Virus record (IMG/VR): IMGVR_UViG_3300018410_000011
Span: 1 to 55,797 of that record
From: a virus
Strand: one strand, 5' to 3'
DNA length: 55,797 nt
The notes under the pieces are model-generated. The model did not search any database. It was not told where the DNA came from and saw nothing but the letters and a program-made list of their open reading frames with translations. This document shows, piece by piece, positions 1,914-47,173 of the stretch (positions are counted from its first letter, which is position 1; the number at the start of each line of letters is the position of its first letter). The position numbers and the translations under genes were made by a program.

Positions 1914-2294
1914 TTAATTATCGAAATATTCGTAATAATTTGTAAGAATATCATCAAAACTATATTTACATAATTCAATAACTTTATTCATCGTGTCTTC
2001 TGATAATGTATGATATGATTCTTTAATTTCATACCACATATTATCCATTTCAACAATAGATAATAATATATCATTATCTTCATTTGGTGTAATATCTAAT
2101 GGTTTAGATAAAATCATTTCATATATGTTTTTTAATTCTATACTAGTTTCATATCCATCAGAGAAAGATGAAATCATATTATGAATATGCATATCTAATA
2201 TTTTAATAAATTCTTCTTTATTTTTAGGTAATAATAAATCATTATCGATATTTTCATTTAAAAATTCTTTAAATTCATTTATAGTTGTTATCAT
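1914..2294 (-). CDS. Capsid-leader protein, unknown cargo
   Basis: This 126-residue protein begins MITTINEFKEFLNE, one of the clearest copies of the leader shared by about twenty genes here. The leader ends in LNE, which fits the (L/I)-x-E cleavage rule of T4 gp21 prohead protease, so the protein is probably packaged in the head and trimmed (inference from T4 internal proteins). The remaining acidic, helical 110 residues show no motif that I recognise. A late-type motif lies 25 bases upstream of the ATG. Confidence 0.75.
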   Translation of the reverse strand: MITTINEFKEFLNENIDNDLLLPKNKEEFIKILDMHIHNMISSFSDGYETSIELKNIYEMILSKPLDITPNEDNDILLSIVEMDNMWYEIKESYHTLSEDTMNKVIELCKYSFDDILTNYYEYFDN

Positions 2295-10107: not shown

Positions 10108-10645
10108 ATGATAACAACAATTAATGAATACAAATTAATTAATGAAAAATTTGTAAATTTATGGAATAAAGAAGATATGAAGTTATATATTGATGAAGTA
10201 TTTTCTTTAATGATTAAAGCATACGAATCTATTGGTGGTTTTTTAACAGCAAAATCGGCTGATGAATTATGTGAAAAAACTGATTTAATTAAAATAATAA
10301 AAAGAAATGGAAAGATTAGTGCTGTTTCTTGTTATAAAGTATCTTCTTTCGGAAGAAAAATTAATATGTGGTGCGACTAATGCTACAGAACAAGGTAAAA
10401 AAGATTTGTTATCTATTATAAAAGAAGATATAACTCAAATAAAAAGAAATTCTTATTCTGAAGTTAGTGGTAAATTAGAACACATATATTTAAAATATGG
10501 TGCGACTGTTGTACAAAATTATTTGGTATCTGATATAATAGGAAAAGATATAATTATTGATAAAACAGATGATTTTCATTATTATAGAGAAATTAAAGGA
10601 CAATTACATAGAAAATTATTAGTAGGAAATATTAATAAGTCATAA
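10108..10645 (+). pseudogene. Capsid-leader protein, split by a poly-A frameshift
   Basis: The first frame (10108-10380) starts MITTINEYKLINE and runs through CYKVSSFGRK. The continuation (to 10645) is in the next frame and reads LICGATNATEQGKKDLLSII and onward to EVSGKLEHIYLKYG. Removing one A from the A5 run at 10356-10360 joins them into one protein of about 178 residues reading FGRKLICGATN. From memory the joined protein resembles an acetyltransferase-like family of large phages with the same GATN...GK and EVSG pattern. Either the gene is broken, the homopolymer is misread, or slippage lets both forms be made. An ATG at 10307 could start the second half alone. Confidence 0.65.
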
Positions 10646-10752: not shown

Positions 10753-10971
10753 ATGATAACAACTATTAATGAATTTAAACAATTTATGAATGAAAATAAA
10801 ATAACATTACAACAAGATAGCGCTGATAAAATAAAAATAACGTTAGATGAAAATATTATTTTAACACATGCAAAAAAAATGTTTAAAAAAATAAAAACAA
10901 TGAAAGATGTTTATGGTTTAGGTTCTATTGATTATAATAAATTAATTAAACATTTATCAAAAATTAATTAA
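10753..10971 (+). CDS. Small capsid-leader protein
   Basis: A 72-residue protein starting MITTINEFKQFMNE, with a possible cleavage after MNE that would leave about 58 basic residues (KKMFKKIKTMKD). Small basic packaged proteins are typical of T4 internal proteins, which is the likely role (inference). The gene lies exactly between the two copies of a 59-bp direct repeat, so it looks like a cassette inserted by duplication. A late-type motif precedes it. Confidence 0.65.
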   Translation: MITTINEFKQFMNENKITLQQDSADKIKITLDENIILTHAKKMFKKIKTMKDVYGLGSIDYNKLIKHLSKIN

Positions 10972-15063: not shown

Positions 15064-15840
15064 TTAATCTTGTCTTAATACATAACCTTCTTCGGAACAA
15101 AAATCTACCATTTTATTTAGTCCTGTTGAACCATAAGGTCCACCTGGATTAAAATTATAGAAAGATACAGTATTTGGTTGAAAAATTACATTAATAGATT
15201 CTTTTTCGTAATATATATATGATTCTAATTTAGTTTCTTTAATATCGTTATATGAATTTTCTTGGAATAAAAATAGTGCCCATCCTGGTTGTTCATTTTC
15301 ATTAGCCATAACATCAAATCCCATTCTAAAATATCCACGTTCGTGATTATTTAAATCTTTATTTTTAATTTCAGATGATAATATATTAATAGAATTTTGT
15401 ACATCATTATCATCAACCGTACTAAAATTTTCGTTATCTTCTTCAGGTGACCCAGAATCTCTATATATTTCACCAGGAATATATGCTAAAAAACACTCTT
15501 GACTATCATAACCTTTTTCTTCAATCCATCTACTGAATTGTTCGGCATTGTTGTAAATTTTATTTATAGAATCACCACCAGATGTTAATCTATCCATCCC
15601 TAAAGATTTAATCCAATTAGGTATTAATTCTCTATGGAATTTTGTATATGTATTATTTAGATTACCAGGACCTACATGCAATGATGTGAATATAGTACCA
15701 CTTTCAACTAAAGAAACTAATATATCTAAATCTTTTAAATCTGTTAAATTATTTAACACACCTTTTAAAATTTCATATGTTGAATCATTTTCTATATTTT
15801 CTCTAATATATTTTTTAAACTCGTTAATATTTGTTATCAT
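15064..15840 (-). CDS. Large capsid-leader protein, unknown cargo
   Basis: A 258-residue protein with the leader MITNINEFKKYIRE, which ends in IRE and fits the (L/I)-x-E cleavage rule. The cargo contains GTIFTSLHVGPGNLNNTY, an RWIEEKGYDSQECFLAYIPG segment and a Gly/Pro-rich end (FNPGGPYGSTGLNKM). It is mixed alpha/beta with a single obvious His-containing motif. I cannot assign a family. A late-type motif lies 18 bases before the ATG. It is probably packaged and injected (inference). Confidence 0.65.
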   Translation of the reverse strand: MITNINEFKKYIRENIENDSTYEILKGVLNNLTDLKDLDILVSLVESGTIFTSLHVGPGNLNNTYTKFHRELIPNWIKSLGMDRLTSGGDSINKIYNNAEQFSRWIEEKGYDSQECFLAYIPGEIYRDSGSPEEDNENFSTVDDNDVQNSINILSSEIKNKDLNNHERGYFRMGFDVMANENEQPGWALFLFQENSYNDIKETKLESYIYYEKESINVIFQPNTVSFYNFNPGGPYGSTGLNKMVDFCSEEGYVLRQD

Positions 15841-19165: not shown

Positions 19166-20526
19166 TAACTGAATTTAAAAAATATTTACTAAATGAATCC
19201 ACAAAATTTAAAGAAAGTGAATATGATTTAGTAATAGTGGATGTACAAGAAGGATTTAAGAAATTTTTTGGTGAAGAGTATTTATTAGCATTAGAAGAAT
19301 ATTGTGAAAATTTTACAAGAGTTTTTCAAATATTTGATACTAATAATACAAATCACAGTGATTATATATTTCCAAATCAAACATTAGAAATAGAAAAAAC
19401 GTATGGTGGTCAATTAGATGAAGAAGATATAGATTATTTATTTACTGAACCTATGCGAGATTATGTTAGATCTAAAATGAATAATTTACAAGAACGTGAC
19501 ATTTTCGAAACAATAAATGGAGATTATTATGTATATGTTGATGCCGCACATGAATGGTTTTTTTGTACAAAAGAAATGGCAGATTTATTTAAAAAATTTA
19601 AATCTGAAAATAGAAAAATTATGTTAGTTGGTGGTGCTGGTGGATCTAAAAAAAATCCTAAAGGTGAATGTTTACGAGATATTTATGTTACATTAAAAGC
19701 ATTTGGAGTTGATACAAGATATAATTTAGATTATGTTTATTCAGCAGATGGAAATATGTTTAAATCAAATATTAAAGGCGTTCCGTTAACAGACGAACAA
19801 CGAAATAAAGTAAAATCTACTAATGAAAATTACAATAATGATGATATAATTAATTTAAAAACTTTTGATTTTACTACTTTATTTAATACTATAAATAAAG
19901 AGTGTTTTAATTCTTCTTTATCTATAATTCCTATCAAATTTTCTACTTCTAAATCATACACTGCACAATTTGTTAGACCACGTTATCCTAAATATGATGG
20001 AACTGATAAAGAATATTTTGTTTTTTCTACTTTATTTGAAATGACATATAAAAAATTAAAAAATGTGTTAGCGCATGAAATGATACATTATTATTTGTAT
20101 GCTATTATGGATAGAGATAAATCACATCATGGATATTCTTTTCAAAATAAAATGAATTCTATTAATAATTTAAATTTAGGATATATCATAACATTAAAAG
20201 ATGATGAACCAAGTAATGTATCAGAAGAAAATTTAAATAAAAAGTTACAAAAAAAGAAATTTATAACATATAAAATAAAAGGACAAAACGGATATTCTTT
20301 AATAAACGAAATTACATTTATTAAAGATAAAGCTAATTTTTTAAGTAAAAGAACAATGTATGGTGTTACAGATATAAAAGTGTATGATACATCATCAGCA
20401 CATTATAAAGTATTATCTGGATCTACAACAAAAATAAAATTATCAATAATAAAACCACAATATCAATATTTAATAGACAATATTATTAATGATACAAAAA
20501 ATACAAAATTTTTATATAATTTATGA
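19162..20526 (+). CDS. Capsid-leader fusion: isochorismatase-like plus SprT-like metalloprotease
   Basis: The 454 residues begin MITEFKKYLLNE, a clear leader with an LNE site. Residues of about 20-210 resemble the isochorismatase / cysteine hydrolase fold: DLVIVDVQEGF at the start and the nucleophile region GECLRDIYVTLKAFGVDT. The C-terminal half contains LAHEMIHYYLYAIMD with HExxH near residues 306-310 and a following HHGYSF, as in SprT-like zinc proteases. I know no other protein with this pair of domains. It overlaps both neighbours by four bases. A packaged double enzyme that attacks host proteins on entry is an attractive inference. Confidence 0.65.
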   Translation: MITEFKKYLLNESTKFKESEYDLVIVDVQEGFKKFFGEEYLLALEEYCENFTRVFQIFDTNNTNHSDYIFPNQTLEIEKTYGGQLDEEDIDYLFTEPMRDYVRSKMNNLQERDIFETINGDYYVYVDAAHEWFFCTKEMADLFKKFKSENRKIMLVGGAGGSKKNPKGECLRDIYVTLKAFGVDTRYNLDYVYSADGNMFKSNIKGVPLTDEQRNKVKSTNENYNNDDIINLKTFDFTTLFNTINKECFNSSLSIIPIKFSTSKSYTAQFVRPRYPKYDGTDKEYFVFSTLFEMTYKKLKNVLAHEMIHYYLYAIMDRDKSHHGYSFQNKMNSINNLNLGYIITLKDDEPSNVSEENLNKKLQKKKFITYKIKGQNGYSLINEITFIKDKANFLSKRTMYGVTDIKVYDTSSAHYKVLSGSTTKIKLSIIKPQYQYLIDNIINDTKNTKFLYNL

Positions 20527-21107
20527 TAACGACGATAAATGAATTTAAATTAAATATATCAGAATCCGTTCAAAAATATGATTTAGATGCTATATTAAAT
20601 ATAGCATTAACATATAAAGATGATGAGTATTATTTTTATAAATATGCTGATGAAACTAATGATGATATAGATAATATAGATGACGAAAGTGATGAATATA
20701 TATCATGGTACAAAGAAGAAATTGAATATATAATAGAAAATATATATTTTTTAATGAAAAGTAATTATTCTTCACCTGGTTTAGTATATAGAAAAATAAC
20801 TGTTAATGAAAATTGGTTTAATAATTTAAAATCTGGTGATAATTTAGGAATATATTGGACATATGATGAAAACTCAGCAGAATCACATTGGTCAAAAGAA
20901 GATATTGAAGTTTTATTAATAGCTGAAATTGATTCATCAAATATAGATTATAAAAATACATATTTAGCACATATAATACCTTATACTGGCGAAGACGAAA
21001 AAGAAATAAGATTATTAAAAAATACAGAAATTAATATTAAATCTATAATTATAAAAGATGAAGAACAAGATTTATCTAAATTTGAAAATACAATATTTAA
21101 AGCTTAA
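20523..21107 (+). CDS. Capsid-leader ADP-ribosyltransferase (R-S-E type)
   Basis: The 194 residues start MITTINEFKLNISE. The cargo has GLVYRKI (Arg near residue 91), GIYWTYDENSAESHW and, near residue 158, DEKEIRLL. These follow the R ... S/T ... ExE order of arginine-type ADP-ribosyltransferases such as T4 Alt and ModA. T4 Alt is itself packaged, injected and modifies host RNA polymerase, which makes this the most direct functional parallel in the cluster. It overlaps the previous gene by ATGA and the next by one base. The target is unknown. Confidence 0.65.
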   Translation: MITTINEFKLNISESVQKYDLDAILNIALTYKDDEYYFYKYADETNDDIDNIDDESDEYISWYKEEIEYIIENIYFLMKSNYSSPGLVYRKITVNENWFNNLKSGDNLGIYWTYDENSAESHWSKEDIEVLLIAEIDSSNIDYKNTYLAHIIPYTGEDEKEIRLLKNTEINIKSIIIKDEEQDLSKFENTIFKA

Positions 21108-21748
21108 TGATAACAACGATAAATGAATTTATGATTAATGAAACATATTCTAAATTAGAATTTGAAAATATACATTTAGATTATCATAATCAACAAAACT
21201 GTTATAAAATGAATGCTAAATTAAATGGTGAAATTGTAGCATATTGTGATTATACAGAGTATAATGGTATTTATCAAATAAGTATGATAGAATCATTAGT
21301 TAAAGGCCAAGGATATGGTAAAGCTATAATGATGGAATTAGCTAGATTATATGGATATAAGAATATAGAACGAAATAATTTAACTCCTGATGGTCAAAAA
21401 TTACGTAATAAAGTTGATAATGAATTAGGTTTTGATTACACCGAGTATAAAAAATCATTAAATAAACATTTATCTAATGAAGAATCAATAGATAAAATAA
21501 GAATTAAATATCCTTTATGTGCTGATTTTATGTCTGAAATTATATTATTTGATTATAGTGACACATGGTTAAAATGGAAAAATAATAATAAAATAAAAAA
21601 TATAGAACAAGAATTACAAAATACAGATATAGATATAAATGATTTATCAGATATAACAGAATGGATAAAAAATTCAGCGACAAATAATAATTCTACTACA
21701 GAATCTGTTCCAGATTATATTTTAGAATATATTCAAAAATTATCATAA
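21107..21748 (+). CDS. Capsid-leader GNAT-like acetyltransferase
   Basis: The 213 residues start MITTINEFMINE. The first half contains KLNGEIVAYCDYTEY, then IESLVKGQGYGKAIMMEL, the GNAT motif A (Q/RxxGxG/A) that binds the acetyl-CoA pyrophosphate, then a helix and GFDYTEYK. The C-terminal 100 residues are helical and unassigned. A second leader GNAT-like protein is at 34760. It is the last gene of the four-gene leader operon. I infer an injected protein-modifying enzyme. Confidence 0.65.
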   Translation: MITTINEFMINETYSKLEFENIHLDYHNQQNCYKMNAKLNGEIVAYCDYTEYNGIYQISMIESLVKGQGYGKAIMMELARLYGYKNIERNNLTPDGQKLRNKVDNELGFDYTEYKKSLNKHLSNEESIDKIRIKYPLCADFMSEIILFDYSDTWLKWKNNNKIKNIEQELQNTDIDINDLSDITEWIKNSATNNNSTTESVPDYILEYIQKLS

Positions 21749-31103: not shown

Positions 31104-31652
31104 ATGGAAAATAAAACTCTACATATAAATTTATATGCTGGACCAGGTACAGGAAAATCAACAATGGCAGCTGATATATTTTCAAAATTAAAATATAAAA
31201 ATATTAATGCTGAATTAATAACAGAATATGTTAAAGAATTAGTTTGGGAAGAATCATTTAAAAAAATAACTAATCAAATATATTTATTTGCTAAACAATT
31301 AAAAAAACATTCTACTTTAGAAAATAAAGTAGATGTATTAATTACCGATTCAGCATTACCATTAGGATTAATTTATGATAATGGTAATACTAAGTATTTA
31401 AAAGAATTAATTCTTTCTGAATTTAATAAATTTGATAATTTAAATATTTTTTTAAAAAGAACTAAAAAATATAATCCTAATGGTCGAATGCAAACGGAAT
31501 TAGAAGCAATAGAAAAGGATAAAGAAATATTATCGTTTTTAGAAGAAAATAATATAGAATATATAACTATAGAAGCAACAAATACTGCTTATATAGAAAT
31601 ATTAAATATTATTAAAAAAAGAAGACCTAATTTATGGAACAACATACAGTAG
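31104..31652 (+). CDS. P-loop nucleoside kinase-like ATPase
   Basis: A 182-residue protein with Walker A LYAGPGTGKST (residues 10-20), an ELITEYVKELVWE segment typical of the AAA_28 / NadR-kinase-like group, and VDVLITDSALPLG as the Walker B-like strand. A basic lid (KRTKKYNPNGRMQTE) follows. The length fits phage nucleoside or nicotinamide-riboside kinases. The substrate cannot be told. It is divergent from the giant tail gene and overlaps the next gene by 19 bases. Confidence 0.7.
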   Translation: MENKTLHINLYAGPGTGKSTMAADIFSKLKYKNINAELITEYVKELVWEESFKKITNQIYLFAKQLKKHSTLENKVDVLITDSALPLGLIYDNGNTKYLKELILSEFNKFDNLNIFLKRTKKYNPNGRMQTELEAIEKDKEILSFLEENNIEYITIEATNTAYIEILNIIKKRRPNLWNNIQ

Positions 31653-32440
31653 AAAGTATAAAAGAAAAACTAAAAGTATATAATGATAAAGATTTTAAAT
31701 TTGATCCTGAAAAACATGTATACACTTATAATGGTAATGTAATGAGAGGAACAACCGGATTTTTACATAATTTTGTAAAACCATTTGATTCCGATTATTG
31801 GTCAAAGAAAAAAGCAGAACAGGCTGGAATAACACAAGAAGAAATGTTAGCACAATGGGATGCAAAACGTGATAGATCATGTGACTTAGGACATATGGTA
31901 CACGATTATATAGAACATTTTTATGAAAATAATTCAACTAAATTAACAGAAGATGAAGAAGCTAATTTAAGAATTGCTAAATTTCATACTATTTATGAAA
32001 ATAAATTAAAAAACTTAATTTCAGTAGGATCAGAAATTAAAGTTTTCTCAAAAAAATGGAATTTAGCTGGAACAATAGATAAGATATATTTATATGAGAA
32101 TTCTATTATATTAGGTGATTGGAAAACTAATAAAGAAATCAAAACAGATAAATCATTTTGTTTCGGTAAATTATTAACACCATTTAATAATTACAAAGAT
32201 AATGAATTAAATAAATATTCTTTACAATTATCTATTTATGCCTTATTATTAGAAGAAGCTGGAATATATGTAGATTATTGTTTTATTTGTCATATACCAG
32301 AAAAAGGTGATTCTGAAATTTATAAATTAAAAGATTTTAGAGCTGAACTTAGAGCATACTTTACACATCAATTTTTAATGACTGAAGTTGTGGATATAAA
32401 TAAAGAAAAAGAATTAGTAAAAATGGAGGTAATATGGTAA
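31634..32440 (+). CDS. RecB/Cas4-type PD-(D/E)XK exonuclease
   Basis: The 268 residues show the exonuclease motifs in order: GHMVHDYIEH (H87 or H90), LAGTIDKIYL (D149), LGDWKTNK (D162, K164) and YSLQLSIYALLLEEAG with the Q-x3-Y motif (Q198, Y202). That set defines PDDEXK_1 enzymes used in DNA recombination or end processing. Phages use such nucleases for recombination and for degrading host DNA. It overlaps the upstream kinase gene and is followed directly by a leader gene. Confidence 0.85.
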   Translation: MEQHTVESIKEKLKVYNDKDFKFDPEKHVYTYNGNVMRGTTGFLHNFVKPFDSDYWSKKKAEQAGITQEEMLAQWDAKRDRSCDLGHMVHDYIEHFYENNSTKLTEDEEANLRIAKFHTIYENKLKNLISVGSEIKVFSKKWNLAGTIDKIYLYENSIILGDWKTNKEIKTDKSFCFGKLLTPFNNYKDNELNKYSLQLSIYALLLEEAGIYVDYCFICHIPEKGDSEIYKLKDFRAELRAYFTHQFLMTEVVDINKEKELVKMEVIW

Positions 32441-32442
32441 AT

Positions 32443-33216
32443 ATGATAACAGATATAAATTTATTTAGAATATATGAAAATTTTAAAGACTCAGAAAATA
32501 AATTAAATGAAGGATTAATTAAATCCTATCCTATAGATAAATCATTTGATATTTTAATTAATAAAACAGATCCTGTTTTAGATAATGTAAAAAGAGAATC
32601 TATGATACAAAATAATAAAATTATGTTATGTTGTAATAAACTAAATATTAGTGAATTTTTAGATTTATTAACTACAATAAATAACTTAGGTTATTTTATA
32701 TCAACTATTAAACCATATCAAAATACACCATTTAAATTTTTACAATTTAATGAGTTTAAAATAAAATTTTTTAATGAAAATAGTTTAAACAAATTCACAT
32801 CTTATGATATAATAATAGAAGCAAAGTTTGATATAATATACAAAACTAGTAGTAATAAATTATATCATGTAACTGAAGATATTTATGTTAATAAAATTTT
32901 TAAAAATGGTTTAATTGTTAAATCATATAATACATTATTAGATTATCCTGAAAGAATTTATTTAACAGATGATATACAACATAGTAAATTATTTATAGAT
33001 AAAAAGAAATTTTATTATAATAATTATCAAGATAAAAATATAGAAAGAAGAATAGGTAAAGATCAATATAGAAAAAAATCAGATAATGTTTATGTTATAC
33101 TTGAAATAGATAATTCTAATAAAGATATTATTTTGTATTTAGATCCAAATATGTCTAATGCATATTTTACTTTAAATACAATACCACCAAACAAAATTAA
33201 AAAATATGAAGAATAA
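32443..33216 (+). CDS. Capsid-leader protein with ADP-ribosyltransferase-like C-terminus
   Basis: The start was set at ATG 32443 (MITDINLFRIYENF), not the in-frame ATG three codons upstream, because the leader begins there. The 257-residue protein has a LNE site near residue 25 and is a paralogue of the 4111 gene over its full length. The shared signature is KLYHVTEDIY, FKNGLIVKSYNTLLDYPERI and then YLTDD. His in LYHVT and Arg in ERI are candidate NAD-contact residues of an ADP-ribosyltransferase-like fold. I infer an injected effector. Confidence 0.6.
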   Translation: MITDINLFRIYENFKDSENKLNEGLIKSYPIDKSFDILINKTDPVLDNVKRESMIQNNKIMLCCNKLNISEFLDLLTTINNLGYFISTIKPYQNTPFKFLQFNEFKIKFFNENSLNKFTSYDIIIEAKFDIIYKTSSNKLYHVTEDIYVNKIFKNGLIVKSYNTLLDYPERIYLTDDIQHSKLFIDKKKFYYNNYQDKNIERRIGKDQYRKKSDNVYVILEIDNSNKDIILYLDPNMSNAYFTLNTIPPNKIKKYEE

Positions 33217-34524: not shown

Positions 34525-34722
34525 TTAAAAATTATCATCATCTTCATCAAATTCTTCATCTTTGTCTGAATTAGCTAACATGATAGTATGATAAGTCATA
34601 TTTTCAATAGCATCTTCTAATTCATCACAAGTTCTAAGATAATTTATAATTTCATCAAGAGTAAATGATGGATTATAATTCTCGTTAATATTTTGTTTAA
34701 AAGTATTTATATTTGTTATCAT
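34525..34722 (-). CDS. Small acidic capsid-leader protein
   Basis: The start was set at 34722 (MITNINTFKQNINE), not an upstream in-frame ATG, because the leader begins there and an exact late motif lies 14 bases further upstream. The 65 residues after trimming at INE leave an acidic, helical peptide ending DKDEEFDEDDDNF. It may be a small internal head protein. It is the last gene of the minus-strand leader cluster 34.5-37 kb. Confidence 0.65.
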   Translation of the reverse strand: MITNINTFKQNINENYNPSFTLDEIINYLRTCDELEDAIENMTYHTIMLANSDKDEEFDEDDDNF

Positions 34723-34759: not shown

Positions 34760-35269
34760 TTATTTAATTTCATATTTATCTTTTAAATAATTATATTCTG
34801 GATTAGATTTTAAAATAAATAAATCACCATTAGTATTAGTTTTAATGTGATCTATATCATTTTCCAATTTTAATTTTTGTGCCATTTTAGGAACTTCATT
34901 TTTATTTAATGTTCTTCCAGGTGTTGTATACATATGACCAAATTCATGAATAAATTTTAATGTTATTTTATATCCTAATCCTTGATTTTGTAATGTATTT
35001 GATATATGTCGATGAGGATGATATAATTCATCATTAATAATTTGAATATCAAAAATTATTCCTTTATTTATTTCATTATCTGTTGGTAATTTTATACCTA
35101 AATGTATAATAGAATTATTATCATCACCTAATTCTATTAATTCAATATCTTTCCAATTAATATTTTTATAATCTTTATATTCTACTGTCTCATCAGGTAA
35201 TCTTAAACCAGGAAATAAATGAAATTCTTCATTTAATTTATTTTTAAATTCATTAATTGTCGTTATCAT
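34760..35269 (-). CDS. Capsid-leader GNAT-like acetyltransferase
   Basis: The 169 residues start MITTINEFKNKLNE, an ideal leader with an LNE site. A GIIFDIQIINDELYHPHRHI strand-turn leads into LQNQGLGYKITLKFIHEFGH, where QNQGLG is the acetyl-CoA-binding GNAT motif A. The C-terminus holds NEVPKMAQKLKLE. It overlaps the upstream leader gene by ATGA. It is a second packaged acetyltransferase-like protein besides 21107 (inference). Confidence 0.65.
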   Translation of the reverse strand: MITTINEFKNKLNEEFHLFPGLRLPDETVEYKDYKNINWKDIELIELGDDNNSIIHLGIKLPTDNEINKGIIFDIQIINDELYHPHRHISNTLQNQGLGYKITLKFIHEFGHMYTTPGRTLNKNEVPKMAQKLKLENDIDHIKTNTNGDLFILKSNPEYNYLKDKYEIK

Positions 35270-35892
35270 TCAATAGTTCTCTCTTTTATATTTAATATTC
35301 CTAAATAATCCATTTTTAAATCTTTTAATGACCATAACTCATTACTAATATCAGCGTCAGGTACGCAACTATAAAATTTCTTTTTATATTTTTCAGGTAA
35401 ATCAGATGGTCGTTTAACATTTAGTTTATTAAATATATTTAACTTAAGTGATTTTCTTATTTCTTTTATTTCATCTTTTTCTAATGATGAAATCCAAACA
35501 TTTAAATCAAATTTTACACCGTATTTATTATTAATTGAATTAGGACATTTTTGTTGTTGTTGTTTTATATTAATAATATCAATATCATCTGTCTTATCAT
35601 TATATAAATCAACACCATATACATAAAATAATCTAGTACTGTCATCCACACCCTTTAAACAATTATCGATAGAATTTGATAATGAAACTCTAGCTGTAAA
35701 ATCATCTTCTATAACTGAATTATTGTTTTGGTACGGGTTATTTGGTACTTTTGCTGTAAAAATAAAAGTACCATCATTATTTAATAATTTTTTATAAGAT
35801 AAATGAAAATATTTATACTCAGATTCTGCTTTATCTATAGTATAAATATTTTCATTTAATTTATTTCTAAATTCATTAATTGTCGTTATCAT
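35266..35892 (-). CDS. Capsid-leader protein, unassigned catalytic-looking domain
   Basis: The 208 residues start MITTINEFRNKLNE. The cargo has YKYFHLSYKKLL, then AKVPNNPYQ, then IEDDFTARVSLSNSIDNCLK, then LFYVYGVDL. I recall this pattern (FHLS ... P.NP ... ED.T.R...S.S...C) from phage and bacterial proteins related to ADP-ribosyltransferase-like folds, but cannot prove it. It overlaps both neighbouring leader genes by four bases. Confidence 0.6.
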   Translation of the reverse strand: MITTINEFRNKLNENIYTIDKAESEYKYFHLSYKKLLNNDGTFIFTAKVPNNPYQNNNSVIEDDFTARVSLSNSIDNCLKGVDDSTRLFYVYGVDLYNDKTDDIDIINIKQQQQKCPNSINNKYGVKFDLNVWISSLEKDEIKEIRKSLKLNIFNKLNVKRPSDLPEKYKKKFYSCVPDADISNELWSLKDLKMDYLGILNIKERTIE

Positions 35893-36638
35893 TTAGCTGT
35901 AATAAATTTATTTTTATTTATATCATAAACTAACCAACCATCTTCACCTCTTCCAGGAATCCATTCACAATCTATTTCAATATTTATTAATTTTTCACAT
36001 TCAGAAAATTTATCAAATATATGATTTTTAATAAGATTTATTAAACCATTATCATCAAAAGGATTAGAATCACATAAATTAATTGCTATTTTATACTCTT
36101 CTTTATTAATATAAACATCACCATAATCTATTGATAATGTTTTAATACCATTTGAAAAATTTATTAAATTTTTCAAATTTATAATTTTATCAAATTTATT
36201 ATTAGATTCAATTGATTCTTTAATATATTCACCGTTTTTTAATACATCTATAAATTCTTGTTCGAAATTACCATTATTATCAAAAACAGTATATTCCGTT
36301 CTATCAATATAACATACTAATGGATAATTATCTTTAGAATTTATAGTAGTACCAAATTCATAATATTCATCATTTATTTTTATTGTATAATTAGAAATAA
36401 AAATAATTCCTAATAAATTATTTTGTTTTATATCAAATGGTTCTCCACTTTCTTCTATTACTATATTAATACCTTCTGGTAATTTATTTTCATGTATTAA
36501 TAAAGCTAATCTACCCATACATTTTAATAATTTAGATTCATTAAAAAAATCACGAGGAATTACTCTATGATAATTATAAATAGATTCATTTATTTTTTTT
36601 AATGTTATTAATTTATATTCATTAATCGTTGTTATCAT
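35889..36638 (-). CDS. Capsid-leader protein, unknown cargo
   Basis: The 249 residues start MITTINEYKLITLKKINE, a leader with a four-residue extension before the INE site. The cargo begins YNYHRVIPRDFFNESKLLKC and continues with a beta-rich region ending WIPGRGEDGWLVYDIN. I recall DFFNESKLLKC from other phage proteins of unknown function. It heads the three-gene overlapping run 34760-36638. A TTTAATATATAA-like variant lies upstream (around 36643). Confidence 0.6.
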   Translation of the reverse strand: MITTINEYKLITLKKINESIYNYHRVIPRDFFNESKLLKCMGRLALLIHENKLPEGINIVIEESGEPFDIKQNNLLGIIFISNYTIKINDEYYEFGTTINSKDNYPLVCYIDRTEYTVFDNNGNFEQEFIDVLKNGEYIKESIESNNKFDKIINLKNLINFSNGIKTLSIDYGDVYINKEEYKIAINLCDSNPFDDNGLINLIKNHIFDKFSECEKLINIEIDCEWIPGRGEDGWLVYDINKNKFITAK

Positions 36639-36674: not shown

Positions 36675-37031
36675 TCATTTAAAATATCTAAAGCCTTGAA
36701 ATCCTTTCATTGTAATTGGATCAATTTTATAAAATTTACCGGTACGTTCAATAAATTTACCTTTCCAAATATTACCAGTAGTTGTACATTTAAACTCTTT
36801 TTCACTCAGTCCAGAGATAATATGGTAGCCTATAACATTACCATTATAACATATATAGCATTTACTTCCAATATTTGTTCTAGGGAAACCATTTGTCTTA
36901 AAATTTAAAACTTCACCATTTTCTGCTGCAATTAATTCTTTTTCATACTCATTCCATTTAATTGATTTAGGAATAGTAATTATAATGTCTTGACTCATAT
37001 ATTTTTTAAATTCGTTAATTGTTGTTATCAT
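36675..37031 (-). CDS. Capsid-leader protein, small beta-rich cargo
   Basis: The 118 residues start MITTINEFKKYMSQ. The expected cleavage Glu is replaced by Gln, so processing is doubtful. The cargo has IGSKCYICYNGNVIGYHIIS and KEFKCTTTGNIWKGKFIERT, a compact beta-barrel-like pattern that could bind RNA or nucleotides (for example an ASCH/EVE-like fold; low certainty). It follows the deoxyribosyltransferase-Nudix gene by 12 bases. Confidence 0.6.
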   Translation of the reverse strand: MITTINEFKKYMSQDIIITIPKSIKWNEYEKELIAAENGEVLNFKTNGFPRTNIGSKCYICYNGNVIGYHIISGLSEKEFKCTTTGNIWKGKFIERTGKFYKIDPITMKGFQGFRYFK

Positions 37032-37043
37032 ATAATTATATAT

Positions 37044-38195
37044 TTATTTTATAACTGACATTATTTGTCCTAAGTTGGACCAATCTAAATATTGCATATT
37101 GATAGCATCTTCTAATGTAATTACATGTAATTCTGTTCGTTCCGTGTCTTCTATATTTCCAAAAGTTTGACCAACACAAGATTTTATTTTATTCATTTCT
37201 AATTCTGATAAAGTATAAGAATATAAAAACGATTTATGTGTTAACATAGTAGAACAAATTTGTCTAGCACTTTCAAATATTAATTTTTCTATTTGTGGTG
37301 TAAATCCAGTTTCTTCTTCTAATTCATCAACCATAATTGTTTTAGGATCTACTCCTTCTTTTACGCTTGACCCACCTGGTAATTCATATACTTTACCTTT
37401 TGTATTATTAACTGGTGATCTAAATTCAGATACTAAAACTAATTCTGTTTTCATTATATCTTGATTTGGTAAGTATAAAACACATGAACTAATATCTGGT
37501 CTAGAAAATATAAATTCGTTATTTTTATATCTATTTTCATCACGGATATAAATATTAACCCATAAAGAAAAAGCAAATATTTTATTATTACTAGGAATAC
37601 GATAAACATTTAATACTTTGGCATCAGAAATCCAATTACGATTTAATTTTAATTGTTTATACCAAGATTGAAATTGTTCTGTTTTCCATATTTCTTGTGG
37701 TATAAATCTTTCTCCATCAATTCTTTTATAATCTTCTTGTGTTTCATATACATGTTTAATAGCAGAAAATAATTCATGATAAACTGGTACTTTTAAATCT
37801 TTTGCCCACCATTCTTGATAACGTACTGAATCTGCAGTTAATTCTGTAGACAAGATACATTTACCAGAATCTTTCCAGTAACCCCATTCATCATTCGTAG
37901 TTAACCCTAATAGTTCAGTCTTAGTATTTCTATTAATATGAAATAATATGTTATCTGACGCTCTTAAGGCACGAGTTTCCCATAATATTTGTGATTCATA
38001 ATTAAAATCTTCAAAATTTCCTTCTCTAGCTTCCGGTACAAATACGATACCATCATATCCAATTAGATTTAATATTTCTAATGCTTTAATTCTCCAACTT
38101 ATACCTACTTGTCCAGGTCTTAATGACGGACCAGCTAAAAATAAAGATTTATTAATTTCATTTGGTATAGATTCTTGTGCGTATATTATTTTCAT
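37044..38195 (-). CDS. Nucleoside deoxyribosyltransferase-like / Nudix hydrolase fusion
   Basis: A 383-residue two-domain protein. Residues 1-150 resemble nucleoside 2-deoxyribosyltransferases: SLFLAGPSLRPG, ALEILNLIGYDGIVFVPEAR and RALRASDNILFHINR. The C-terminal third holds a Nudix box around residues 273-297 (GGSSVKEG ... DELEEETGF), slightly longer than the standard spacing. Such fusions could remove or recycle modified nucleotides or ADP-ribose compounds. ADP-ribose-related activity would fit the ADP-ribosyltransferase-rich leader arsenal or a counter to NAD-depleting defences (both inference). There is no leader, so it is probably made in the infected cell. Confidence 0.75.
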   Translation of the reverse strand: MKIIYAQESIPNEINKSLFLAGPSLRPGQVGISWRIKALEILNLIGYDGIVFVPEAREGNFEDFNYESQILWETRALRASDNILFHINRNTKTELLGLTTNDEWGYWKDSGKCILSTELTADSVRYQEWWAKDLKVPVYHELFSAIKHVYETQEDYKRIDGERFIPQEIWKTEQFQSWYKQLKLNRNWISDAKVLNVYRIPSNNKIFAFSLWVNIYIRDENRYKNNEFIFSRPDISSCVLYLPNQDIMKTELVLVSEFRSPVNNTKGKVYELPGGSSVKEGVDPKTIMVDELEEETGFTPQIEKLIFESARQICSTMLTHKSFLYSYTLSELEMNKIKSCVGQTFGNIEDTERTELHVITLEDAINMQYLDWSNLGQIMSVIK

Positions 38196-38252: not shown

Positions 38253-38822
38253 TTAATTAGTAGAATTTGCATACCTTGTATTATATAATTCTTTTAATTC
38301 TAACCAAAATTTATAGTATTTAGATGGAATTTGTTCTGGTTTATAATGTCTACTATAACTTCTAAAAGTTGATCCAACAGAATAATTTGATCCTTTATAA
38401 TATTCCATACTTTCTGCTTTTGTATTAATATCAATAGCATATGTTATATATGAACCATCATAAAAATGTCCTTCTAAAATATCATAATCTGAATTATGTT
38501 TAGTATGTGAATTGAAATTTATTCTAACAAAGGAATTTCCAGCATTCTCATTAATATTAGTATCAACAAATTGTTGAATATCTGTAAAATTTTCATCTGC
38601 TTCAATATAATTTCCGTCTTCATCCTTTTTCATCAATTCAATAATATCGTGTCCTTTGATAAGGGCATAATTGACCCCATTATGTGTGTAAGCGATTATT
38701 CCATTTTCTAATCTAGCATCAGGAAATTTTGTGGCAACCATAGCCACATCAGTATTGTTAAAGTTAGAAGCAGTTCCTAATTGCTCATTCAATTTTTCAA
38801 ATATTTTAAAATTAGTAATCAT
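38253..38822 (-). CDS. Capsid-leader protein, unknown cargo
   Basis: The start is placed at 38822 (MITNFKIFEKLNE), 17 codons inside a longer frame, because an exact late motif and the leader mark it. The 189-residue protein has a possible cleavage at LNE. The middle (AYTHNGVNYALIKGHDIIE) uses more G and C than its neighbours, which hints at recent acquisition. The C-terminus is rich in Tyr (YKGSNYSVGSTFRSYSRHY). Family not recognised. Confidence 0.6.
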   Translation of the reverse strand: MITNFKIFEKLNEQLGTASNFNNTDVAMVATKFPDARLENGIIAYTHNGVNYALIKGHDIIELMKKDEDGNYIEADENFTDIQQFVDTNINENAGNSFVRINFNSHTKHNSDYDILEGHFYDGSYITYAIDINTKAESMEYYKGSNYSVGSTFRSYSRHYKPEQIPSKYYKFWLELKELYNTRYANSTN

Positions 38823-38850: not shown

Positions 38851-39057
38851 TTATAAATAATTCTCCATATCAAACCATGATATTATTAATGCATTAATAA
38901 TTAGAACTAATGAAGAACATAGGTATGTATAAGTTAAAAAAATTGACACATATCCTATTGCTATTAATATAGCAGATATTAATACAATTATTAAAGGAAT
39001 TAATAATAATATTGCTCTGATTTTTATTTGTTGTAAGTATTTATTTACTTTTTTCAT
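38851..39057 (-). CDS. Small two-helix membrane protein
   Basis: The 68 residues have a basic N-terminus (MKKVNKYLQQIKIR) followed by two hydrophobic segments at about residues 15-36 and 40-60. This should give an in-in hairpin in the inner membrane. Holins and superinfection-exclusion proteins can look like this, but there is no direct evidence. It overlaps the FMN reductase gene by four bases. Confidence 0.55.
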   Translation of the reverse strand: MKKVNKYLQQIKIRAILLLIPLIIVLISAILIAIGYVSIFLTYTYLCSSLVLIINALIISWFDMENYL

Positions 39058-39524
39058 AATTTTAAAAAATTGTTTATTTGGTTATTTATTAGTGTTTTAG
39101 TTTTATTATCTATAATTTCATTATCATTTATAAGATTATTGATAGACGGAAAATATAATCTATCATAAAATGGTATAGCTTTAAGATATAACATTACATC
39201 ACATAAATGATCTACTCCACGTACATTACCTTGTAATCCAGCTGCAATACCTGTGAATAATATATGTTTATCTTTAAATGTATTCATATTGCAATTATCA
39301 ATTAATAATTTTAATTGTCCAGGATATGATCCATTATATTCAGGAATAACGAATATTATTTTATTAGAATTGTTTATATTATTTTGTACTTGTAATATAT
39401 CTGTGTTTGGATATATTAAATGTGTATTATACATTTCATGTAATATTTGATAGTAATATGTAGAAAATATTTGACTCTTATTACCAGTTCTATTAGTACC
39501 GTTTATTATTGTTATATCATTCAT
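39054..39524 (-). CDS. NADPH-dependent FMN reductase-like flavoprotein
   Basis: The 156 residues follow the flavodoxin-like FMN reductase plan. IINGTNRTGNKSQ is the phosphate loop, VIPEYNGSYPGQLKLLID is the family signature, and TGIAAGLQGNVRGVDHL lies near the flavin. Family members reduce FMN, quinones or azo dyes with NAD(P)H. A role in phage redox supply for nucleotide synthesis is possible. It is divergent from the DNA-modification operon. Confidence 0.8.
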   Translation of the reverse strand: MNDITIINGTNRTGNKSQIFSTYYYQILHEMYNTHLIYPNTDILQVQNNINNSNKIIFVIPEYNGSYPGQLKLLIDNCNMNTFKDKHILFTGIAAGLQGNVRGVDHLCDVMLYLKAIPFYDRLYFPSINNLINDNEIIDNKTKTLINNQINNFLKL

Positions 39525-39576: not shown

Positions 39577-40284
39577 ATGAATGAATATAATACATTTGAA
39601 GAAGCTTTTATTGGGCTAAATCAAGAATTAATAGAAAAATATCAATATAATATTGAATCACGTATTGGAACAACATTAGAAATTTGTCCTATTTTATATA
39701 AAATAAATGATGTATCAACATATAAATTTGATAATGAAAAAATAGGACGTTTAGATTATGAATATTGTGATACTTATTATAATTGGATGATTAGTGGAAA
39801 TACAGAAATTAAAGAATTGGCTGAAAAATATCCTAATACTTCTAGATTTTTAGAAAAACCAAAATCAAATCTTTTACCAGAAAATTTCAATACATTTTAT
39901 GGTCCAAGAATTAATTATCAATTAGAAAATATAATTAATGAACTTAAAAATAATAAAAATACTAGAAGAGCTGTTATATCTATATTAGATAAAGAAGATA
40001 CTAATTTATTAGCTTTAGATGAAACATTAGAATTCCCGTGTACAGATTCGGCAACATTTTATATTAGAAATAATAAATTAAATGTTCATGTACATATGAG
40101 ATCACAGAATGTTGGACAAGTAATTAAGTTAGATATGTATTTATGGGGTAGATTTACAACAGAATTAGCAAATAAATTAGGTTATGCGCCTGGTTCATTT
40201 ACGTCTAGTATTGTATCAGCTCATTTATTTACAAGAGATTTAGATTATTTAAAAGAATTAATAAACACATATAATGAGAAATAA
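39577..40284 (+). CDS. Deoxycytidylate hydroxymethylase (thymidylate-synthase family)
   Basis: The 235 residues keep the thymidylate-synthase core: FYGPRI, TRRAVIS with R130 and R131 for phosphate, EFPCTDSATF with catalytic C155, and MRSQNVG. The Asn that reads uracil in true synthases (LPFN in the gene at 46115) aligns with D186 (KLD). That Asn-to-Asp change is the known mark of enzymes acting on dCMP, such as T4 gp42. The likely reaction is dCMP plus methylene-tetrahydrofolate giving 5-hydroxymethyl-dCMP. It is the first gene of a four-gene overlapping operon whose other products handle a sugar. The protein is a little shorter than T4 gp42. Confidence 0.75.
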   Translation: MNEYNTFEEAFIGLNQELIEKYQYNIESRIGTTLEICPILYKINDVSTYKFDNEKIGRLDYEYCDTYYNWMISGNTEIKELAEKYPNTSRFLEKPKSNLLPENFNTFYGPRINYQLENIINELKNNKNTRRAVISILDKEDTNLLALDETLEFPCTDSATFYIRNNKLNVHVHMRSQNVGQVIKLDMYLWGRFTTELANKLGYAPGSFTSSIVSAHLFTRDLDYLKELINTYNEK

Positions 40285-46114: not shown

Positions 46115-47173
46115 TTAATTAGATAATGGTAAATTAATTTTATTGCTTGATTCATAATCAATAATTTCTAAATCATTAAATTTATAATCGAAGATATTTG
46201 TATATCTTCTTCTATGTATTAATAATTTAGGTAATTTATATCTTTGATTATTAAATTGTTCTTTAATAGGATATATATGATTATTATAAATGTGTGTATC
46301 ACCTAAATTAGATATTAATTCATCCGGTACCATATTTACATTTAATGCTAATAATTGTAATAATAACGCATAACTTGCTATATTAAATGGTAAACCTAAT
46401 CCAACGTCAACAGAACGCATATTAAATAATAAAGAAATTGATCTAGTTGGTAAATTTAATACATCACAATCATTATGTGTAAAAATATTTGGTGTATTTT
46501 TTGGTACTAAATTTATTCTTTCTTCTAGTGATAATTTTCTAGTAAATACTTGAAATGAATAATGACATGGTGGTAAAACAGCATTTTTTACATTTGTAGG
46601 ATTCCATGCCGTTACTAACATTCTTCTTGAATCTGGATTATTTAATAAAGTATTAACTAAATCTTGAATTTGATTGATATTATCATTCCAATTTACCCAT
46701 TCAGACCCATATACTTTATTCAATTCACCCCATACTTCATAAAATCCTGGATGATTTTCATCATCTTTTATAGCTTCTATAAATTCTTCTCTTGTATACA
46801 TTCTTGTATTATCTTTATTGGTAGTATCTAAAGATTTAACTAAATTAACAACAGAATATTTTATAGCTTCACTATTATTTTTATTATATTCAGTTACATA
46901 ATTTTTATAACAATCTCCTACCCAAATATATACATTATTATCTACTAAATATTTAATATTTGTATCACCTTTCAAAAACCACAATAATTCATGAAAAATA
47001 CCATTATAAAACATTTTTTTACTTGTCAATAATGGAAAACCATCATTCATATTGTGTCTTAACGTTCTACCAAAAACTTTTCTAGTTCCTGTTCCAGTTC
47101 TATCATCACTTTCATATCCATTAGAAATAACATCTTCTACTAAATCTAAATAATCTTTATCTAATTTATTCAT
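46115..47173 (-). CDS. thyA: Thymidylate synthase (ThyA type) with an insertion
   Basis: A 352-residue enzyme with GYESDDRTGTGTRKVFG at the N-terminus, LPPCHYSFQVF with the catalytic Cys (near 203), DVGLGLPFNIASYALL with the uracil-reading Asn, and YNNHIYPIKEQ near the end. It is about 80 residues longer than the E. coli enzyme because of a segment around residues 85-160. Similar insertions are known in some synthases. It converts dUMP to dTMP. It should be compared with the dCMP-type paralogue at 39577. Confidence 0.92.
   Translation of the reverse strand: MNKLDKDYLDLVEDVISNGYESDDRTGTGTRKVFGRTLRHNMNDGFPLLTSKKMFYNGIFHELLWFLKGDTNIKYLVDNNVYIWVGDCYKNYVTEYNKNNSEAIKYSVVNLVKSLDTTNKDNTRMYTREEFIEAIKDDENHPGFYEVWGELNKVYGSEWVNWNDNINQIQDLVNTLLNNPDSRRMLVTAWNPTNVKNAVLPPCHYSFQVFTRKLSLEERINLVPKNTPNIFTHNDCDVLNLPTRSISLLFNMRSVDVGLGLPFNIASYALLLQLLALNVNMVPDELISNLGDTHIYNNHIYPIKEQFNNQRYKLPKLLIHRRRYTNIFDYKFNDLEIIDYESSNKINLPLSN

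What the first reader, a model, noticed from the sequence alone, without database searches (positions are those of the whole stretch)
37044..38195. Deoxyribosyltransferase-like and Nudix domains in one enzyme
The pairing could recycle nucleobases or clear ADP-ribose-type signals, relevant to NAD-based defence or to the phage's own ADP-ribosyltransferases.
Basis: inference. Interest (0 to 1): 0.5.

Follow-up and report, generated by a model that had tools for sequence, protein, structure and literature searches.

The report
Phage sugar-base cutter fused to Nudix
A large-phage protein joins an enzyme fold that cuts nucleobases off nucleotides to a fold that cuts ADP-ribose-like molecules; a relative is already in print as a predicted NAD-signal enzyme, and conserved residues hint that it takes apart ribonucleotides rather than DNA building blocks.

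Summary
With the window I compared 24 distinct fused proteins: 21 viral, one Planctomycetota MAG, two Streptomyces plasmids.

It is not new in kind. The 40%-identical Bacillus phage G protein (AEO93593.1, gp334) was named in 2021 and 2022 as a predicted ADP-ribosyl-cyclase-superfamily member, a class often fused to Nudix.

Added here: (i) MilB, a ribonucleotide N-glycosidase, is the nearest fold of named activity to the N-domain, and F19 appears to fall on MilB Phe17, the ribose selector, so 'deoxyribosyl' probably misleads; (ii) the Nudix-box Arg is absent in 24 of 24 while ExxEE is kept in 24 of 24; (iii) the presumed acid D81 is kept in 24 of 24 fused but 6 of 23 stand-alone proteins.

Best reading: a two-step ribonucleotide dismantler for ADP-ribose/NAD-type molecules. 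Context is mixed (NAMPT, PARG or macro genes near some relatives, thymidylate synthase near others), so substrate and any defence role are unproven.

The parts
37044..38195 (-). Two-domain protein, 383 aa, PF15891 (NDT-like) + ADPRase-type Nudix; relative of Bacillus phage G gp334
37743..38195 (-). N-terminal NDT/N-glycosidase-fold domain, residues 1-151
   Evidence: PF15891; domain modelled alone: VIA 4mcj_C Z 18.2, MilB 4jem_B Z 12.1, DNPH1 4p5d_C Z 11.2
38139..38141 (-). F19 codon: apparent equivalent of MilB Phe17 / DNPH1 Tyr24 / CtNDT Tyr7 (from alignment start offsets, no residue table seen)
   Evidence: F in 22 of 24 fused and 22 of 23 stand-alone, Y in the 3 Streptomyces proteins that lost E103
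37953..37955 (-). D81 codon: presumed general acid (DNPH1 D80, MilB D78)
   Evidence: 24 of 24 fused, 6 of 23 stand-alone; equivalence inferred from motif and spacing
37887..37889 (-). E103 codon in TTNDEWG: presumed nucleophile (DNPH1 E104, MilB E103)
   Evidence: 22 of 24 fused, 22 of 23 stand-alone; equivalence inferred
37047..37649 (-). C-terminal ADP-ribose-diphosphatase-type Nudix domain incl. its N-terminal beta part, residues 183-383
37302..37376 (-). Atypical Nudix box, residues 274-298: ExxEE kept, Arg replaced (D290 here), Gx5E Glu not in place
   Evidence: control
37140..37142 (-). E352, invariant Glu in the loop after the Nudix core; candidate catalytic base
   Evidence: 24 of 24; role inferred from recalled E. 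coli ADPRase anatomy

Best explanation
A bifunctional ribonucleotide-dismantling enzyme. The Nudix half hydrolyses a pyrophosphate bond in an NDP-X molecule, most likely ADP-ribose or a relative, giving AMP plus a sugar phosphate. The N-terminal half, a MilB/DNPH1-like N-glycosidase with E103 as covalent nucleophile and D81 as acid/base, cleaves the N-glycosidic bond of a phosphorylated ribonucleotide (AMP, NMN, NAD or similar), giving free base plus ribose 5-phosphate. Both orders are possible: NAD -> ADP-ribose -> AMP, or ADP-ribose -> AMP -> adenine. The likely net effect is removal and recycling of NAD/ADP-ribose-type metabolites during infection. Shown: both folds (by prediction), conserved acidic residues, recurrence. 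Inferred: substrates, ribose preference, order, and any counter-defence role.
For: Folds. For the N-domain MilB is the nearest structure of named activity (VIA Z 12.1; Foldseek E 2.6e-3), after 4mcj, YtoQ and an E. faecalis protein; a deoxyribosyltransferase (11.3) and DNPH1 (11.2) follow within one Z unit, so these are tied. VIA pairs model residue 14 with MilB 12, DNPH1 19 and CtNDT 2, which puts F19 on F17/Y24/Y7 if no gap falls in those five residues. PMC10603095 (passages) says MilB F17 accommodates ribose, F17Y reverts preference to deoxyribose, and names the DNPH1 triad Y24/D80/E104. D81 24/24 and E103 22/24 in fused proteins. Nudix ligands E291/E294/E295 and E352 24/24. Relatives' context: within 4 kb of the fusion, NAMPT plus an NrtR-type Nudix protein in L022, microbial PARG in L018 and L020, macro in L023 (positions); a stand-alone PF15891 gene overlapping a KptA gene behind an ADP-ribosylglycohydrolase in a planctomycete, another next to a PARG-like stretch. 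Precedent for pyrophosphatase + NDT-fold hydrolase as one phage protein: DutZ/DmtZ (passages).
Against: I found no tested activity for a PF15891 protein. The Nudix box lacks its Arg in 24 of 24 and the Gx5E Glu, so that half could be weak or only bind. The ribose argument is not general: Y7F/D72N in LlNDT-2 gave poorer activity, on ribonucleosides too, although the like mutant of the T. brucei enzyme accepted a ribonucleoside better (passages). TIR (NADase-class) domains also appear among the weak matches of the N-domain: BtpA at Foldseek E 8.7e-3, TIR-bearing SfSTING at Z 9.4 among Ras rows of like Z. Context is not consistently NAD: NAMPT 7 of 20 records, thymidylate synthase 9 of 20 and within 1.4 kb of the gene in the window's three nearest relatives. 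L007, L035 and L041 have only the N-domain, and two Streptomyces plasmid forms keep the Nudix but not the N-domain motif, so the steps are not always coupled. The published view is that the N-domain belongs to the ADP-ribosyl cyclases.
Confidence: 0.42

Rival explanations
1. Published reading: the N-domain is an ADP-ribosyl-cyclase/DrHyd NAD-consuming enzyme that makes an ADP-ribose-derived signal and the fused Nudix destroys it, a 'toggle' by which jumbo phages control the host.
For: PMC7824862 section 3.4.8 and PMC9503650 section 3.3.3 name AEO93593.1, the 40%-identical relative. DUF4062, distantly similar to TIR and NDT domains, is an NADase family (abstract start, passage). TIR rows among weak fold matches.
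Against: MilB is the nearest fold of named activity, and D81, an acid needed for poor leaving groups, is invariant in the fused proteins. The only cyclic-ADP-ribose-synthase match by profile is ThsB at E 0.17, not significant.
Confidence: 0.22
2. Nucleotide-pool sanitation or salvage in DNA precursor metabolism: the Nudix half makes an NMP from an unwanted NTP or NDP-X and the N-domain removes its base, as DutZ/DmtZ do in Z-phages, possibly linked to modified pyrimidines made by the phage's second thymidylate-synthase-like protein.
For: Thymidylate-synthase and thymidylate-kinase-like neighbours in the window and its nearest relatives; DNMK neighbour in L022 and its homologues in L017, L025, L026; phage precedent.
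Against: F19 hints at ribose, not deoxyribose; thymidylate synthase in only 9 of 20 fusion-bearing viral records; the best Nudix fold matches are ADPRase-type.
Confidence: 0.22
3. The Nudix half is a regulatory or ligand-sensing module (as in NrtR) and only the N-domain is an enzyme.
For: Nudix Arg lost in 24 of 24, Gx5E Glu not in place; structural match to NrtR Nudix domains, Z 15.2-15.4.
Against: All three ExxEE glutamates and E352 are 24/24; E. coli GDP-mannose diphosphatase YffH has K in place of the Arg (passage). Two Streptomyces plasmid forms keep the Nudix and lose the N-domain motif, the opposite of the expectation.
Confidence: 0.1

Closest known systems
Bacillus phage G gp334 (AEO93593.1), noted as 'NUDIX hydrolase' in its record
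   Same: Same two-domain architecture, 39.9% identity over the full length; predicted NAD/ADP-ribose enzyme in PMC7824862 and PMC9503650
   Different: Sequence divergence; I saw no test of either protein
MilB, hydroxymethyl-CMP/CMP N-glycosidase; DNPH1/RCL
   Same: N-domain fold (Z 12.1 and 11.2), Phe at the apparent ribose-selecting position (as MilB), D and E of the triad
   Different: 15% and 12% identity over the aligned part; base preference here unknown
4mcj, putative nucleoside deoxyribosyltransferase of Parabacteroides distasonis
   Same: Closest fold of the N-domain (Z 18.2) and the only PDB sequence match of its profile below E 0.1 (E 1.5e-10)
   Different: Short stand-alone chain without a described function in what I saw; TLLEMG in place of TTN(V/D)E(F/W)G
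ADP-ribose diphosphatase (NudF/NUDT5 type), YffH GDP-mannose hydrolase
   Same: C-domain fold including the N-terminal beta part (Z 17.7 and 16.6)
   Different: Nudix box without Arg and with the Gx5E Glu not in place; an RQ...T...H element after the box; substrate unknown
Phage DmtZ/DutZ (NDT-Dut-like protein of phage Wayne; PMC12884076, passages)
   Same: Phage fusion of a pyrophosphatase with an NDT-fold nucleotide N-hydrolase
   Different: dUTPase-fold partner and deoxy substrates (dAMP), in Z-DNA phages

Membership tests
PF15891 Nuc_deoxyri_tr2 | Pfam profile score above the curated cut-off | tested here: met
   30.6 bits vs 30; 22 of 22 members match at E<=0.01
Nucleoside 2-deoxyribosyltransferase (PF05014 kind) | Tyr at the sugar-selecting position for 2'-deoxy substrates | tested here: inconclusive
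   Phe at position 19 in 22 of 24 fused, which speaks against it, but the equivalence rests on VIA range offsets
Nucleoside 2-deoxyribosyltransferase (PF05014 kind) | PF05014 profile match | tested here: not met
   Not among the families listed for the window protein at E<=1; 5 of 22 members match at E<=0.01
MilB/DNPH1 nucleotide N-glycosidases | Fold with (F/Y)-D-E triad | tested here: met
   F19, D81, E103 and fold; residue equivalence inferred, not read from a residue alignment
MilB/DNPH1 nucleotide N-glycosidases | Hydrolysis of NMP to base and pentose 5-phosphate | not testable with these tools
   needs an enzyme assay
Nudix hydrolase (ADP-ribose diphosphatase type) | Nudix fold with the ADPRase N-terminal extension | tested here: met
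Nudix hydrolase (ADP-ribose diphosphatase type) | Canonical box GX5EX7REUXEEXGU | tested here: not met
   Arg 0 of 24; ExxEE 24 of 24. Hydrolases with altered boxes exist
ADP-ribosyl cyclase / DrHyd (published assignment) | Profile match to an ADP-ribosyl cyclase family | tested here: inconclusive
   Pfam scan at E<=1 listed none for the window protein, but the authors' own profiles were not available
ADP-ribosyl cyclase / DrHyd (published assignment) | Makes cADPR or ADPR from NAD(P) | not testable with these tools
   needs an enzyme assay

The most novel reading that the evidence does not exclude
A distinct, so far untested two-step enzyme in which an Arg-less ADPRase-type Nudix domain and a ribo-specific MilB-like N-glycosidase take ADP-ribose or NAD down to free base and ribose 5-phosphate in one polypeptide: a phage route that clears NAD-derived immune signals or the products of NADase defences completely and feeds nucleobase and R5P back to the phage. 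The N-domain chemistry changed (D81 lost, F19/E103 kept) in the lineages that shed the Nudix half.
Probability: 0.22. Interest if true: 0.65.

Novelty: new member of a known kind. Interest (0 to 1): 0.4.

Why it matters
PF15891 is common (56 of 392 Planctomycetota genomes at E<=0.001, 44 over the cut-off; also phages and actinobacterial plasmids), and one full-text search for the Pfam name gave 0 papers. The residue evidence turns a vague 'deoxyribosyltransferase-like' label into testable statements: ribose rather than deoxyribose, E103/D81 catalysis, and an Arg-less Nudix that keeps its metal ligands. If the substrate is ADP-ribose or NAD, large phages would carry a complete clearance pathway for NAD-based immune signals in one protein.

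Tried and rejected
Whole-record association with NAD salvage, not supported: NAMPT (PF04095) in 7 of 20 fusion-bearing records against 33% of jumbo phages for NadV in PMC9503650 (passage); records differ in length and many are fragments. Thymidylate synthase: 9 of 20, not general either.

Bacterial origin of the fusion: in 392 Planctomycetota genomes only the seed genome gave a full-length match (up to 4 candidates scored per genome). Of the other 36 partial matches I read four loci, L063-L066. L063 is an NDT-like domain fused to a metallophosphoesterase. L065 is a Nudix related to the C-half without the N-domain, and it has K at the Arg position, so Arg loss is not confined to the fusion. Plasmids: 3 records with a match over at least 80% of the query, all Streptomyces.

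One origin of the fusion: on a tree of 45 N-domains (22 fused, 23 stand-alone; L056 and L057 left out) the label needs at least 6 changes, 4 of them forced by well-supported branches. L035 and L041 sit in well-supported, otherwise fused groups (98/91, 98/92); L007 does not (87/88). The Fisher p of 3.7e-8 for D81 ignores relatedness and overstates the case; L059, counted as stand-alone, is a truncated fusion.

Left out before counts as duplicates or near-duplicates: L002, L008, L009, L010, L012-L015, L019, L024, L028, L029, L033, L043, L045, L062; hits H4, H5 (N-domain only) and H7 were not fetched, and most of the 33 plasmid records were not either (six fetched). R26, invariant in A2 and A3, is R in only 22 of 24 fused and 19 of 23 stand-alone in the wider set. 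One fused protein (L034) has an Arg one residue before the Nudix Arg place. The control for the Arg sees only boxes with canonical spacing.

The neighbour search of planctomycete loci used 14 queries by tblastn at E<=0.01 with flanks up to 1.5 kb: 2 of 30 loci had an ADP-ribose-type neighbour, and one of these (L075) is the L064 locus from which three queries came.

VIA lists: no ADP-ribosyl cyclase row among the 50 shown, which excludes nothing; TIR-bearing SfSTING is there at Z 9.4. An ART-like look of window ORF 32434-33216 was my impression only; Pfam, PHROGs and PDB sequences gave nothing, though Lak phages have relatives.

Change after checking: best explanation 0.45 -> 0.42 and published toggle 0.20 -> 0.22, because the TIR rows and the LlNDT-2 result had been left out.

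Literature seen: PMC7824862, one section whole plus passages; PMC9503650, PMC10603095, PMC12884076, PMC4081090, PMC11647913, PMC5389931, PMC13174449, PMC12548924 and PMC6102473, passages only (some abstract starts in listings). Carabias 2024 (retron-Eco1) was seen only as a reference in PMC12548924. The E. coli ADPRase catalytic base and the T4 capsid-targeting rule are recalled.

Full report
Observation. The ORF is real, on the minus strand (38195 to 37044), 383 codons plus stop. Pfam gives PF15891 at residues 16-115 just above cut-off and a sub-threshold NUDIX match. The structure model from a 22-sequence alignment (mean pLDDT 86.5, pTM 0.77) supports both domains: residues 1-151 on 4mcj_C (Z 17.9), 180-383 on ADP-ribose diphosphatases (Z 17.7) and YffH (Z 16.6).

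Distribution. tblastn in the phage collection found 5 records: Bacillus phage G (two records, 39.9% over the full length), an uncultured 485-kb phage (37.6%), and two N-domain-only matches. IMG/VR scans gave 7 and then 44 loci, near-duplicates included. Twenty-four distinct fused proteins (window, 20 viral contigs of which 11 exceed 200 kb, one MAG, two plasmids) and 23 stand-alone PF15891-type proteins were compared. The Planctomycetota MAG gene lies among ORFs that I read as glycogen branching enzyme and primase, so it is probably chromosomal. Among 392 Planctomycetota genomes only that one gave a full-length match, while 56 have PF15891 at E<=0.001.

Prior description. [quoted passage not shown] PMC9503650 (passages) repeats the cyclase prediction for AEO93593.1. 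The finding is therefore a new member of a predicted kind; I saw no experiment on it.

N-domain. Modelled alone (pLDDT 90.0) it matches 4mcj best (Z 18.2, rmsd 2.4, 143 aligned), then YtoQ (13.6), an E. faecalis protein (12.4), MilB (12.1), a deoxyribosyltransferase (11.3), DNPH1 (11.2) and further deoxyribosyltransferases (11.0 and below); rows within one Z unit are tied. Foldseek puts MilB next after 4mcj (E 2.6e-3), with unrelated folds, TIR domains of BtpA (E 8.7e-3) and Ras proteins close behind; DNPH1 is not among its 50 rows. The start offsets of the VIA alignments put F19 on MilB F17, DNPH1 Y24 and CtNDT Y7; this is inferred, since the tool prints only ranges. PMC10603095 (passages) states that MilB F17 accommodates ribose, that F17Y reverts preference to deoxyribose, and that Y24/D80/E104 form the DNPH1 triad. 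Against a simple rule, Y7F/D72N of LlNDT-2 worked worse, on ribonucleosides too (passages). F19 is Phe in 22 of 24 fused and 22 of 23 stand-alone proteins; the three Tyr are Streptomyces plasmid proteins that also lost E103. R26 lies near the place of MilB R23, which contacts the phosphate; it is R in 22 of 24 and 19 of 23.

D81. The presumed acid is Asp in 24 of 24 fused and 6 of 23 stand-alone proteins. Three stand-alone proteins that fall inside mostly fused groups, L007, L035 and L041, have T, G and R there, and the fused C-halves give no tblastn hit at E<=0.01 in their loci; L035 and L041 are well placed, L007 less so. A poor leaving group such as adenine needs an acid, while nicotinamide does not (general chemistry), so the fused enzymes may cleave ordinary bases. 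This is inference; 4mcj and the PF15891 proteins of L064 and L066 keep an Asp at what looks like this place without a Nudix (sequences).

Nudix domain. E271, E291, E294, E295, E352 and R259 are 24 of 24; the Nudix-box Arg is 0 of 24 (E 6, H 6, D 4, K 4, A 2, S 1, T 1). As a control, a regex leaving the Arg position free found 9 boxes in the loci fetched by then, 8 with Arg; the exception is a member of this family. A stand-alone planctomycete relative (L065) has K there, in a box that the regex misses. PMC5389931 (passages) gives the box of E. coli GDP-mannose diphosphatase YffH as GX4DX7KEX2EEXGU, so loss of Arg does not by itself mean loss of activity.

Context. Window neighbours: FMN-reductase-like 39054-39524, thymidylate-synthase-like 39577-40284, thymidylate synthase 46115-47173, two thymidylate-kinase-like ORFs at 31104 and 33220. 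In the close relatives L001, L003 and L004 a thymidylate synthase lies within 1.4 kb of the fusion. In other relatives, within 4 kb: NAMPT and an NrtR-type protein (L022), microbial PARG (L018, L020), macro (L023). In planctomycete L064: ADP-ribosylglycohydrolase, a weak 2H-like ORF, KptA and PF15891, the last two overlapping. PMC12884076 (abstract and passages) gives a phage precedent in which a dUTPase-like pyrophosphatase and an NDT-fold N-hydrolase are separate or fused.

Conclusion. Most likely a two-step ribonucleotide hydrolase of the NAD/ADP-ribose network (0.42), with the published toggle (0.22), DNA-precursor sanitation (0.22) and a non-catalytic Nudix (0.1) as rivals.

Noticed in passing
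window 1914-2294(-), 10108-10380(+), 10753-10971(+), 15064-15840(-), 20523-21107(+), 21107-21748(+), 34525-34722(-), 34760-35269(-), 35266-35892(-), 35889-36638(-), 38253-38822(-); also 36675-37031(-): Eleven otherwise different ORFs share a start like MITTINEFKxxLNE; a twelfth has the start without the LxE. Also 3 ORFs in L001 and 2 in L004, none in L003, 1 hit in nine other phage loci; the pattern was written after seeing the motif. It resembles a T4-type capsid-targeting leader with a prohead-protease (L/I)xE site (rule recalled), so these may be packaged internal head proteins. The NDT-Nudix gene lacks it but is flanked by them.
   Followed up: partly
L063 832-1938 (-); L038 6459-7061, L044 7271-7891, L046 8755-9360: An NDT-like domain fused to a calcineurin-like phosphoesterase in a planctomycete, and homologous phosphoesterases near stand-alone PF15891-type genes in three phages, directly adjoining in L038.
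   Followed up: partly
L064 3-1950: Gene group ADP-ribosylglycohydrolase, weakly 2H-like ORF, KptA, PF15891 with the last two genes overlapping: suggests that this PF15891 protein acts on KptA-type ADP-ribose products.
   Followed up: partly
L058 149-6395; L060 4456-6268; L061 4424-5492: Variovorax plasmid: PF15891 beside an NAD kinase gene, a few kb from macro and Nudix genes; actinobacterial plasmids: HIT-PF15891, with NUDIX directly after it in L060.
   Followed up: no
L056, L057, L059: Streptomyces plasmid relatives look decayed: two keep the Nudix but lost the N-domain motif, one lost E103 and most of the Nudix half.
   Followed up: partly
BFVD A0A1V0SJZ7 (Klosneuvirus): Top viral structure match, 412 aa, 442 alignment columns but rmsd 11.7: possibly the same two-domain architecture in a giant virus.
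   Followed up: no
window 39577-40284 and 46115-47173: Two thymidylate-synthase-family genes in one 56-kb fragment; the first matches PDB 9iqu/9iqc far better than other entries (E 1e-66, next 1.9e-12), hinting at a special thymidylate-synthase-like activity.
   Followed up: no
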